Assembly: GCA_037039925.1 (NCBI GenBank)
Contig: JAXRKP010000187.1
Location: forward strand, 184,501-248,500
Direction: 5' to 3'
DNA length: 64,000 nt
From: Doris montereyensis
Lineage: Eukaryota; Mollusca; Gastropoda; Nudibranchia; Dorididae
The notes under the pieces were generated by a model. The model was not told where the DNA came from. It ran no database searches and worked only from the letters and a program-made list of their open reading frames with translations. A program made the position numbers and the translations under genes. Below, in pieces: positions 49,301-55,300 of this stretch (within the stretch, counting starts at the first letter, position 1; each line of letters opens with the position of its first letter).

Positions 49301-52300
49301 CAACTCAACAATAGTCAAACGTGTTGTTAAGGTAATATGATTCTCAGCCAGCGAATTGTCAAACGTTTAATCAACCCTCCTCCCAGCGGGGGCCTGTCAG
49401 CCATTCGCAAATAAAGAAGGTCATGGTTCAAAGCCCTATACAATATTGTTTGTTTCATTAAAATTTACCCTGTCCACCATTGCGGTGATCTCAGGGTGAA
49501 GTAAAAGAAAGCAGCAAGATGAAAGATAAGTGAAAGAAGGAAAGGAAAGAAATAGGACCTACCAGCAGCACCCGCCAACCGCCCGCGCTCTGTACAATTG
49601 TGACTTGAGAACAATAACGTTCTATCTCCATTGAGGGTCATATTGCACTATTCGACTTTGAAAGTTTAAATGGCTTGGATAGATTTTATACAAATTTGTA
49701 AATGACGTTACTTTATCAAATCCTGTTTATGGGGATAAACACCACAAGACAATTTACAAATTCATATAAAATCTGTACAAGCTAGATAAACTGATTGAAG
49801 ATACACCGCCCACCATATGCGGTGATCTGAGGTGAATTAAGAGGAAACAGTAGGATGGGCAAAGGAATGAAAGGAAGGATGTAGGACCTACCAGTAGCAC
49901 CTGCCCACTCTGTACAAGCAGTTAAACTTTCAAAGTCGATTAACACAAGATGACACTCAGTAGTAAAAGTAAAATAGTAAAGTTCTTTCAGGGCAGTTAT
50001 GGCCCATAAAGCCGGAGCCTATCTCGGTTCCTATAGAGTGAAGTGGAACAGGTGATAATAATCATCTCCGGGACAGGACACTAGTCTGACGCAGGTTTTT
50101 ACTTCATGCTTATAACTTATAGCCATTTACACCTGGGCCGAGTGGGGAAAAATGTGGGTTGAACGCCTTTCCCAAGTGGAATACAATGTCAGACCTAGCT
50201 TTGCCATGCCATGCCAGGATTCAAACGCGGGACCTCATGACCCCAAGTCTGGCAGCCTAAAACCACTCGACCACCGTCATCGCCACTCCACTACAGTGTA
50301 GATAGAACCATACAGTGTAACGCAATGTCAACGGTACCTTTTCTCTCCTCCACGGTCAAGGTGGCTGGTTCTGGTGACGTTGCGTGTCCGGTGTCTTCCT
50401 GTGTCTGAGGCTCCGGTGGTTTTGATTCGACAGACGGTCCTTGCAGGAAATCACCAAATCCGTCATCTTCATCAACAGCAGTCATGTTTCCCGCTTTGTT
50501 TTTGCGCTGCAGGTTGAGAAAAGAGAAAAAGAGGTATTAACCCTTTGAACCCTTAACATCGCTCAACAGGTGAAACGATATGAATCCTATATATATATAT
50601 ATATATATATATACCATAGCACTGTTAGAGCAGTGTGGCAGATTATACTGTATCGTTTGTTCGTCATAGCATTGTCAATGTGAATATACTATGTACGAAT
50701 ATGAAAAATGTCATGTTATTTATGATTTTTAATTCTATAATGATGCTGTATGCAAAATAATTGAAAAGCATATTGTTGAATGTCCTCTCCTGAAAGTAAT
50801 TAAGCATTTATGTAATTATACAGAAACAAATAATAGCATTGAAAGAGAGACTGAGGGAATGAATAATAGGATGGCAGTGAGAATGGAAATCAAACGAAAT
50901 TATATAATTATAAAATAAGTTTTATTTGTTTTGAATCAAGAAAACTTTGCAACCTGCCAGGGCTTGAACCCACGGCCTTTCGGTCAAGTGGCTAGCATCT
51001 CACCCCTTGAGTACCGAGTCCCCCTCAGGAAAAGGTCAGGGATTCGGGACTCAAAGGCTTAAGTCAAACATCAGGTTTCTTGTTGTGTATCAAAACATTT
51101 TCCAAAATTCGTAACGTTTGCTCCTTCTTGTGCTGGTTTTGAATTGGGTTTGAACAAAGCACCAATGAGAGAGAGAGTTTGTGTGCCAAATCTCTTACCT
51201 TTTGCTCCTTTATGCGTTGGTTTCGGATCAGGTTTGAACAGAGCACCAATGAGAGAGAGTTTGTGTGCCAAATCTCTTACCTTTTGCTCCTTTTTGCACC
51301 AATGAGAGAGTTTTGTGCCAAATCTCTTACCTTTGCTCCTTTATGTGCTAGTTTTGGATCAGGTTTGAACAGAGCACCAATGAGAGAGTTTGTGTGCCAA
51401 ATCTCTTACCTTTTGCTCCTTTTTGCGCTGGTTTTGGATCAGGTTTGAACAGAGCACCAATGAGAGAGTTTGTGTGCCAAATCTCTTACCTTTTGCTCCT
51501 TTGCGTTGGTTTTGGATCGGGTTTGAACATAGCATCAATGAGAGAGAGTTTGTGTCCCAAATCTCTTACCTTTTGCTCCTTTTATGGTTTTGAATCGGGT
51601 TTGAACAGAGCACCAATGAGAGAGTTTTGGATCGTTGGGTTTGAACAGAGCACCAATGAGAGAGTTTGTGTCCCAAATCTCTTACCTTTTGCTCCTTAAT
51701 GTGCTAGTTTTAGATCGGGTTTGAACAGAGCACCAATGAGAGAGTTTGTGTGCCAAATCTCTTACCTTTTTGCTCCTTTTGCGTCGGTTTTGGATCGGGT
51801 TTGAACAGAGCACCAATGAGAGAGTTTGTGTGCCAAATCTCTTACCTTTTGCTCCTTTTTGCGTCGGTTTTGGATCGGGTTTGAACAGAGCACCAATGAG
51901 AGAGTTTGTGTGCCAAATCTCTTACCTTTTGCTCCTTTTGCGTCGGTTTTGGATCGGGTTTGAACAGAGCACCAATGAGAGAGTTTGTGTGCCAAATCTC
52001 TTACCTTTGCTCCTTTTTGCGTCGGTTTTGGATCGGGTTTGAACAGAGCACCAATGAGAGAGTCTGTGTGCCAAATCTCTTACCTTTTGCTCCTTAATGT
52101 GCTAGTTTTAGATCGGGTTTGAACATAGCATCAATGAGAGAGTTTGTGTCCCAAATCTCTTACCTTTTGCTCCTTTTGCGCTGGTTTTGAATCGGGTTTG
52201 AACAGAGCACCAATGAGAGAGTTTGTGTGCCAAATCTCTTACCTTTTGCTCCTTTTTGCGTCGGTTTTGGATCGGGTTTGAACAGAGCACCAATGAGAGA

Positions 52301-55300
52301 GTCTGTGTCCACGACTGCAGCACCGGGTTTGCCAAAGGGTTTGCCAAAGTGTCTCAATTTTTGCCTCTGCTCCTCAAAAAATCTTTCTTTCTCTGATTTT
52401 GGTGGACCTCTAGATTTACTAAGCGTGGTTCTATTAGGAATAAAAACGAAACAAACAAAAACAAACCAAAATGAATTTCAAGTTAACACTAAGTCTCTCT
52501 CTACTGTGCCTTCATAGGCAATAATAGCTATACGACTAAACTTTCGCCGTTAGAGTTGAAATTCAGCTGATAAAATTTAATTTTCCCAAACATTTTAGGC
52601 TTCGACTTTTTTGGTTGTTTGTTTGGTTAATTGAAATTTACCCTGCCCACTATTGTGGTGATCTCAGGGTAAGTTAAGAATCGTAGGCGTACAAAGAATC
52701 ATCGTGATTGGGGACTTTGAAATGAATTTTGGGGATTCCATGTTTTCGTTGAACACGTGTTCGGGGAATATGGCCTATACATCTATGCTTACCTGGGTCT
52801 CTGGTTAAGGTTAACAATGCCTGGGTTGGACAGGTGAGCGCTGTACGGAGGAGGAGGTGTGTTCGGTGGAGCCATTCTCATGCCCTGAAAGGATTTTTTA
52901 AATGAGCAAAGGTTAATAATACAAATAAAAATTAAGCAGTTGACAGTTCTCATGCCATGAAACAGTTATTGCAGTCTTAACACCTTCAATATTTGACAAT
53001 TCTCATACCATGAAACAGTTATTGCAGTCTTAACACCTTAAACATTTGACAATTCTCATATCATGAAACAGTTATTGCAGTCTTAATGCCTTAATCATTT
53101 AACGATTCTCATACAATGAAACAGTTATTGCAGTCTTAACACCTTAAACATTTGACAATTCTCATGCCATGAAATAGTTATTACAGTCTTTAACAACTTA
53201 GACATATATAGCTTTTCTAAACACAATCAACACAGAATCTACTCTCCTGAATATTATTTCATTAAGGCAAGACAATCAGTTATGGATGTTACTAAATTGA
53301 GGTAAGCGTATAAGACAGCTTGACCATTTCACAGAGAAATTTCATTGTACGACTATTTCTATTGTGCCAATATGTATTATTTTCAGTCAATCAGACATTA
53401 GATATATATCAAAATCTTCACTCTCAGAATATATGCATGTAAACTAAAAATAAACCCAACAAAAAACAAATAAAAAACTCTATGGCTTTAAGACTATTTT
53501 GTCATGAGTAAACTTTTTAAAGATTTTCTTTACTTTCTTAATTCTATTCTCTGCAGTCACAAGGCTTTCGATGATTCTTCACATTATGATATCATCCACT
53601 TAAGAAAATACCAAGAGCTAACAAATAAATTGCTATCTACCTGCATGGCGAAGGGCATCATCATCTGCTGTTGCATCATGGGATTCATGGGCCGTGTTGC
53701 CTGTATAAAATGGGGTTGCATTCCTCCTCCTTGCGGGCCTTTGAGAAAGATATCATTGGGAATGAGATCAAAAATGGGGATTTAAACTATTGCAAGGGAA
53801 ATAAATCTTTTGTTTTGTTTCCCAACATGATTTCCTTTCCCTTGCTTTTGATGGTCATATTTTATAATAATACAAAAAAATTTTAATAAAAAATGTTACA
53901 CTAATAATATAAATATTTTCATTAAATCTTCTCAAAGGAATTTTATAAATAAGCTAACAATCTACACTCAGTGTATGTCATTTAAGTTCAGTACTGTCTC
54001 CAGATGTGCCAGATGTTTTAATGAAGCCTGTCATCCAAATAAGTACAGGAAATAAGGGATAATGCTATATCTGGAAGTTCAAAAGTGAAAAAATAGTTTC
54101 ACTGGTAATCTATCTACTCCTGGGTAATTCTGTCATGTACGTTACTTTATAGGTGTATGAATCCGACAGAGACAACTAAAATTCATAGGATATATTTAAC
54201 GAAAGAATGATATAGAAAGAGCTGTACTAACAGGAAAGGTCAATGTGAAGATAGGCAGAGGTAGCTCAAGAATGAAACGCATGTAAGTCTGAATGCCTGG
54301 ACGACAAGGGTGTAGACAAAGTGATACAAATATTTTGAGACCCACAGAGAACGGGGAGGAGCGGAGAGGAATGATCGATGATGTTTGCAACAGGCCTGGC
54401 ACATAAGAAGGAGGAGCATAAAAAAATACAACATGATGCTAGTCAAATGAAAGGGAGAATGTACATAACACGGCTACTGTCATCCAAGTAAAATCGTGAT
54501 CCTGATTAAGTGATTTTACAGCTTGACATAATCCCACAACATACAGCAATAGAGAACACTCACTTTCAAAGGTTTGTGATTAGCACACAAATTTCATTTT
54601 ATAGCAGTAAAAATGACAAAACAAACTTGATGAAAGAAATTCACAAATCTTAATCGAAAAATAAACTGTCAATAAGATTCGTTTGTCAGCATATTGACGC
54701 AATAAAGGGGGAAACGTATTTGAATCTTGATTGATTGTTACATATTTGAATTCACAACATCGTTGCCAAAATGTAGTTTGGAGGTGTTGTAGCTGAACCG
54801 TAGTATTGTGAGCTTGCAATCACAAGGTTATTAGTTCAAACCCCATGGCTGGCACAGGTGGGGGTTTTTTTACAACCTTGTACTTTGAGGAAAGGTACCT
54901 CCCTCTACTTTCCTCACTTGACTCAGATGTGAATGAGTACCCAGCTATAGGAAGAGAAAGATCTTGTCGGAGTGTTAATACGAAGTGTCTAACAGGCTGG
55001 TGTACTGTATGCTCCTCAGGGAGTTGAAAAGGACTTTGAATGAAATGGCCTGCTGGGCGCGGGGGGGGGGGGTGATAAATGATATGTAGTCGGTGAGCCT
55101 ACACTTGTGTGGGGAGAGGATACAGACTAGAACTATATATCTTTTTTATCTTCCTCTTCCCCATGCAATACCTCTTAAAACTTAAGCGATAACTGCTGTA
55201 CGATTGCTTTCATTGGTATGCATTTTATACATATATCTGTTAATTGTGAAAAGTATGATGAAAAGTGTGTATAAAAGTTGTGCCTGTTTAGTGACATCCC

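What the first reader, a model, noticed from the sequence alone, without database searches (positions are those of the whole stretch)
51085..52315. A splice donor of SYNRG has been tandemly amplified 14 times
The 80-bp unit spans an exon-intron border: the last ~60 coding bases of E5, then ag|gtaagag and the first intronic bases. Fourteen intact donors lie in 1.1 kb, all in gene orientation. Only the 5'-most is needed. The others could compete for U1 snRNP, extend E5 by one or more units, or slow splicing. Because units are 79-81 bp and vary in an A-run, each extension shifts the frame. The unit has no acceptor, so only a donor was amplified. I know of no described case like this.
Basis: partly seen in the sequence, partly recalled or inferred. 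Interest (0 to 1): 0.85.

Follow-up and report, generated by a model that had tools for sequence, protein, structure and literature searches.

The report
Exon-border minisatellite with fourteen splice donors
In a snail or sea-slug gene for synergin gamma, the DNA at the end of one exon has been copied in tandem about fifteen times, leaving fourteen identical splice donor signals; this kind of array (a "mirage") is already described in amphioxus and probably does little, because the first donor should win.

Summary
Exon 5 of a gastropod SYNRG gene (minus strand, 52430-52243) ends in an ~80-bp minisatellite whose unit is the last 60 exonic bases plus ~20 intronic ones. Fourteen copies carry the same donor, AAG|GTAAGA; a fifteenth, outermost copy has lost it. 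Of 26 array regions with units of 20 bp or more, only this one holds a donor-like MAGGTRAG. The claim that no such case is described is wrong: tandem duplications of exon-intron borders are known as "mirages" in amphioxus genes and are reported not to disturb regular splicing. Most likely this is a mirage grown by slippage or unequal exchange and homogenised together with the exon. Both flanking introns exceed 250 nt (363 and 1,736 nt), and published minigenes with two identical donors under exon definition used only the upstream one, so donor 1 should be used. Donors 2-14 lead to early stops. Donor invariance is not by itself evidence of selection (P 0.14). Genes in this assembly show frame-breaking indels, so A-run lengths are uncertain. 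A new member of a known kind; no RNA data were available.

The parts
52243..52430 (-). SYNRG exon 5 (188 nt), ending at donor 1; its last 60 nt are the exonic part of the repeat unit
   Evidence: Open frame and AG/GT borders; tblastn match to the Physella acuta synergin gamma-like protein, 47% over 72 columns, E 8.8e-11
51117..52308 (-). Minisatellite of the exon 5 / intron 5 border: 15 units of about 80 bp (one of 116 bp with a partial extra copy, one of 50 bp with an internal deletion)
   Evidence: Tandem Repeats Finder rows; unit listing and alignment
51199..52243 (-). Fourteen identical donors AAG|GTAAGA; last exonic base at 52243, 52164, 52084, 52005, 51926, 51846, 51766, 51686, 51570, 51490, 51410, 51331, 51281, 51199
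   Evidence: Exact search
51086..51180 (-). Outermost unit 15: exonic part recognisable, donor degenerate (AAC|GTTACG), running into unrepeated intron
   Evidence: 15 substitutions against unit 6, 8 of them at or after the donor
50335..50506 (-). SYNRG exon 6 (DEDDGFGDFLQGPS...); the strong acceptor CTGCAG|CGC is out of phase with donor 1, a weak AAAG|CG 13 nt on is in phase
   Evidence: Sequence and frame bookkeeping; tblastn. The 3' end is approximate
52794..52884 (-). SYNRG exon 4 (GMRMAPPNTPPPPYSAH...)
   Evidence: 94% identity to Physella acuta over 18 residues; borders read from sequence
52932..53256 (-). 53-bp array upstream of exon 4 whose units resemble the exon 4 acceptor border but have AT for AG; possible decayed acceptor-side counterpart, not established
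   Evidence: Sequence; 16/17 match, 0 of 2000 shuffles of the array reach its score of 14, highest shuffle 13; but 3 of 40 other borders also score 14 somewhere in the window

Best explanation
It is a mirage-type minisatellite: the exon 5 / intron 5 border of a single-copy gastropod SYNRG gene was duplicated in tandem and expanded by slippage or unequal exchange, which also homogenises the true exon end with inner copies. In use, exon 5 is defined across the exon between its acceptor at 52430 and the nearest donor at 52243; the 13 further donors lie inside intron 5 and stay mostly silent. Shown: anatomy, number and identity of donors, no second SYNRG locus found, near-identity of the exon end and several repeats. 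Inferred: mutational origin, use of donor 1, lack of effect on the protein.
For: The unit spans the border. Donor 9-mers are identical, so strength cannot distinguish them; a crude weight matrix with recalled values gives 7.06 for the array donor, 7.10 for exon 4 and -5.95 for unit 15. Apart from A-run length, unit 1 (the true exon end) and unit 4 each differ from unit 6 by one substitution and units 5 and 7 by none, which suggests that the exon is homogenised with the intronic copies. Flanking introns are 363 nt and 1,736 nt (692 nt from donor 14). Carranza et al. 2022 (PMC9225289; abstract, passages and one results section seen) report that five minigenes with two identical donors and 365-nt flanking introns used the upstream donor exclusively, and that smaller exons are preferred. 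Of the 14 donors only donor 1 can keep the exon 6 frame, and that with the weaker acceptor; donors 2-14 meet a stop with both acceptors tried. Amphioxus mirages are reported not to interfere with regular splicing (PMC3087553 section 16; PMC3902484 passage). All 12 SYNRG matches found in the genome lie on this contig. Minisatellites are common here: 26 array regions in the window, arrays in 18 of 40 other loci.
Against: No RNA was available. The exon-definition rule was shown with two donors in human sequences and cells, not with fourteen in a mollusc. Donor 1 is out of phase with the strong exon 6 acceptor in this assembly; I attribute this to an assembly indel or to use of the weaker acceptor, but cannot prove it. 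The invariant 25-nt block that contains the donor is slightly longer than expected by chance (P 0.038), a weak hint of constraint. In the amphioxus case cluster boundaries escape homogenisation; here the far edge does and the exon edge does not.
Confidence: 0.8

Rival explanations
1. The array is a working splicing rheostat: downstream donors are used part of the time, give transcripts with early stops that are degraded, and copy number tunes SYNRG output.
For: Fourteen donors are intact and identical; every use of donors 2-14 gives an early stop, as a poison switch would need; a 25-nt invariant block around the donor (P 0.038).
Against: Donor 9-mer invariance alone is not significant (P 0.14); the exon-definition rule favours donor 1; mirages elsewhere are reported not to disturb splicing.
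Confidence: 0.08
2. The copy number, or the array itself, is an assembly artefact.
For: Genes in the assembly are broken by small indels: an HSP70 copy 99.4% identical in DNA to an intact neighbour has two single-base gaps; SYNRG exons 7, 10 and, less clearly, 21 change frame against relatives.
Against: Units differ by shared and private substitutions (15 variable columns among 13 units) and in length (116, 50), which repeated mis-joining of one copy would not make; an array of 1.2 kb is short for long reads (read type not known here).
Confidence: 0.06
3. Exon 5 is really a long coding repeat exon and the array is translated.
For: Two adjacent units are open across a donor in one frame (KGKRFGTQTLSLIGALFKPNSKPAQEGAN, in 51071-51340).
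Against: Most units are 79-80 bp; the exon 5 frame meets a stop just after donor 2; the Physella acuta protein has one copy only.
Confidence: 0.02
4. It is a nursery for new introns or exons, as proposed for amphioxus globin mirages.
For: Many donors beside coding sequence; published model (PMC3087553 section 16).
Against: No unit has a plausible acceptor, so at present no unit can become an exon or intron of its own.
Confidence: 0.04

Closest known systems
Amphioxus 'mirage' minisatellites (Adh3; globins BflGb6 and BflGb9; PGBD5; troponin C)
   Same: Tandem repeats that span an exon-intron border, many copies with splice signals, inner copies homogenised; donor-side duplication known in BflGb9
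   Different: Here a gastropod and another gene; 14 intact donors against 6 and 3 repeat units in the two BflGb6 haplotypes, the only copy numbers I saw apart from a threefold repeat in PGBD5; only the far edge unit is divergent; no RNA evidence
Human internal tandem repeats at exon-intron boundaries (PMC2812944, passages seen)
   Same: Repeats at the border of coding exons that can alter splicing
   Different: There they are said to form novel introns; here there is no acceptor in the unit
Introns arising from tandem arrays (Zhuo et al. 2007; cited in papers seen, itself not held)
   Same: Tandem arrays that carry splice signals (recalled)
   Different: Those need both donor and acceptor (recalled); here donor only
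Experimental duplicated-donor minigenes (Carranza et al. 2022, PMC9225289)
   Same: Identical competing donors behind one acceptor, long flanking introns
   Different: Two engineered donors in transfected cells against fourteen natural ones

Membership tests
Mirage minisatellite | Tandem units that span an exon-intron border | tested here: met
   60 exonic + about 20 intronic nt per unit
Mirage minisatellite | Lies next to the true exon, same orientation | tested here: met
   Unit 1 is the end of exon 5; all 14 donors on the minus strand
Mirage minisatellite | Many but not necessarily all units carry AG/GT signals | tested here: met
   14 of 15 units
Mirage minisatellite | Inner copies homogenised, edge copies excluded | tested here: inconclusive
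   Unit 15 has 15 substitutions against unit 6, units 1-14 have 0-9; but edge unit 1 has only one
Mirage minisatellite | Copy number varies between alleles or cells | not testable with these tools
   One assembly only
Mirage minisatellite | Regular splicing not disturbed | not testable with these tools
   No RNA data
Tandem-array introns | Unit carries both donor and acceptor (recalled criterion) | tested here: not met
   None of the 8 YAG sites in the array has more than 9 pyrimidines in the 18 nt upstream
SYNRG (synergin gamma) gene | Ordered exons matching a synergin gamma protein, including its EH-domain region | tested here: met
   Main tblastn matches of Physella acuta P0001 run in order from 53724 to 7063 (weak out-of-order matches in simple-sequence stretches set aside); 2 of 5 database hits are named synergin gamma. 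No domain scan of the window's own protein was run

The most novel reading that the evidence does not exclude
The array is a natural, length-variable donor array that holds U1 snRNP along intron 5 and, by copy number, sets the share of SYNRG transcripts that are extended and destroyed, so that a minisatellite acts as a heritable splicing dial.
Probability: 0.06. Interest if true: 0.8.

Novelty: new member of a known kind. Interest (0 to 1): 0.4.

Why it matters
The papers found here use the name mirage for amphioxus only; this extends the kind to a mollusc. It also offers a natural test of donor choice: fourteen donors identical in sequence and near context that differ in distance from the acceptors. 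RNA from this one gene would show directly whether exon-centric proximity alone picks the first donor. And a coding exon end appears to be homogenised with intronic copies, two of which carry a variant that would read as a stop codon in the exon.

Tried and rejected
Selection on donors: tested by permutation and not supported for the 9-mer (P 0.14), borderline for the longest invariant stretch (P 0.038) and for an 18-nt stretch chosen around the donor (P 0.013, chosen after seeing the alignment) (13 of 14 donor units used, unit 13 with its large deletion left out, and of unit 9 only the second part). Coding array: rejected. Acceptor inside the unit: none plausible. Second SYNRG copy: none found; a pseudogene is not excluded by that, but frame changes are more simply assembly noise, since HSP70 copies show the same (that some of those are real pseudogenes is not excluded either). 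Mirages as a general habit of this genome: 40 loci (30 of 139 kinase matches, 6 of 67 HSP70 matches, 4 other SYNRG exons; some overlap), each with up to 1.5 kb of flank, gave no tandem copy of an exon end; the one non-self match, L038, lies about 1 kb away at 72% identity and looks like a diverged neighbouring copy. Match ends stood in for exon ends, and some HSP70 copies have no introns, so this is a weak control. Acceptor-side counterpart at exon 4: suggestive only; the array is adjacent and 0 of 2000 shuffles of it reach the score, but 3 of 40 other borders (exon 9 and 17 acceptors, exon 21 donor) reach the same score somewhere in the window. One search's scan of the window used a pre-filter that dropped one further match; one search did not. 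Exon ends used are approximate (tblastn ends) for several exons. One search's list of 20 arrays was picked by hand; one search repeated the donor check on all 94 repeat rows with the same result. Species: among the 120 of 7993 matches listed, the HSP70 protein is 82-84% identical to named gastropods that I recall as heterobranchs and at most 86% to any full-cover hit, so the species was not identified. Literature searches for the same phenomenon, judged from the listings: 20 of 130 shown; 15 of 15; 20 of 48; 10 of 491; 2 of 2; 2 of 2; 10 of 728; two searches found no papers; one search found one, which was read in part.

Full report
What is there. On the minus strand the window holds a synergin gamma (SYNRG) gene: the main matches of the Physella acuta protein run in order from 53724 down to 7063. 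Exon 5 (52430-52243) ends at a donor AAG|GTAAGA. Its last 60 nt plus about 20 intronic nt form a unit that is repeated to 51117. An exact search finds 14 GGTAAGAG donors, spaced 79, 80, 79, 79, 80, 80, 80, 116, 80, 80, 79, 50, 82. A fifteenth unit at the far edge keeps the exonic part but has lost the donor. In the assembly the unit was found only here (16 matches, all in the array), and SYNRG at one locus only (12 of 12 matches on this contig).

More than chance. Of the window's 21 MAGGTRAG sites on both strands, 14 lie in this array and the other 7 lie outside all 94 tandem-repeat rows; none of the other 25 array regions with units of 20 bp or more holds one. The exon 5 donor border matches the array 45/45; the best non-self score of the 41 other borders scanned is 14.

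How it arose. The exon is the ancestral part: it aligns with the Physella protein, which has the sequence once. Apart from A-run length, the exon's own copy and unit 4 differ from unit 6 by one substitution each, and units 5 and 7 match it. Shared variants link units 3, 8 and 12 and units 11, 12 and 14, as expected from turnover within a minisatellite. So the array was most likely seeded by duplication of the border and expanded by slippage or unequal exchange, homogenising the exon end too (inference).

Is the donor under selection? Across 13 units there are 15 variable columns, none in the 9-nt donor (P 0.14) and none in a 25-nt stretch containing it (P 0.038). That is compatible with recent turnover alone.

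How it works. All donors are identical, so position must decide. Intron 4 is 363 nt; intron 5 is 1,736 nt from donor 1 and 692 nt from donor 14. Carranza et al. 2022 (PMC9225289; abstract, passages and one section seen) found that, for competing donors of like strength, long flanking introns favour the upstream donor, and that minigenes with two identical donors and 365-nt introns used the upstream one exclusively. Donor 1 is thus the predicted site. Only donor 1 can keep the exon 6 frame; donors 2 to 14 meet a stop with either acceptor tried. Leaky use would then make transcripts that are probably degraded (inference).

Caveat on frames. Donor 1 is out of phase with the strong exon 6 acceptor and in phase only with a weak AG 13 nt further on. 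In this assembly small indels break genes: an HSP70 copy that is 99.4% identical in DNA to an intact neighbour has two single-base gaps in 1.8 kb and aligns in three pieces and two frames at 93-100% protein identity; another copy aligns in six pieces at 74-99%. SYNRG exons 7 and 10, and less clearly 21, also switch frame.

What is known. The globin paper PMC3087553 (section 16 read) describes minisatellite-like duplications of exon-intron borders in amphioxus, called mirages, on the acceptor and the donor side, with splice signals in many units, variable copy number, and no disturbance of regular splicing in Adh3 and globins. PMC3902484 (one passage) adds PGBD5 and cites troponin C. PMC2812944 (passages) describes human repeats at exon-intron borders that form novel introns. 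The SYNRG array meets the structural features of a mirage. The listings of my searches (capped lists for four of the seven) showed no molluscan case, but subscription papers, among them the original Adh3 paper, are not held.

Side finding. Directly upstream of exon 4 a 53-bp array (52932-53256) resembles the exon 4 acceptor border at 16 of 17 positions, with AT in place of AG. If real, the same gene has an acceptor-side mirage whose acceptors are gone while the donor-side copies are intact, which would fit the idea that a spare acceptor upstream is harder to tolerate. The similarity is short, and three other borders score as high elsewhere, so it stays a lead.

Verdict. A real and striking array, but a new member of a known kind, most likely a silent by-product of minisatellite turnover.

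Noticed in passing
52932-53256: 53-bp minisatellite just upstream of exon 4 whose units resemble the exon 4 acceptor border but have AT for AG; possible decayed acceptor-side mirage.
   Followed up: partly
50493-50506: Phase of exon 5 donor 1 does not fit the strong exon 6 acceptor; a weak AG 13 nt on would fit.
   Followed up: partly
48503-48311; 41827-41667; 13339-13210: Conserved SYNRG exons switch reading frame against the Physella acuta protein (the third less clearly), in line with indels seen in HSP70 copies of this assembly.
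   Followed up: partly
52102-52084 and 51704-51686: Units 3 and 8 carry a variant that would read as a TAA stop in the exon 5 frame if converted into the true exon.
   Followed up: no
11084-11475: Two 197-bp copies (96% matches) end about 20 nt before the exon 22 acceptor; 31 nt of them resemble sequence upstream of exon 20 (90%).
   Followed up: no
25026-27928 and 44165-45865: Open frames on opposite strands share long peptides; they look like two decayed copies of one retrotransposon-like element in SYNRG introns (recalled resemblance, not tested).
   Followed up: no
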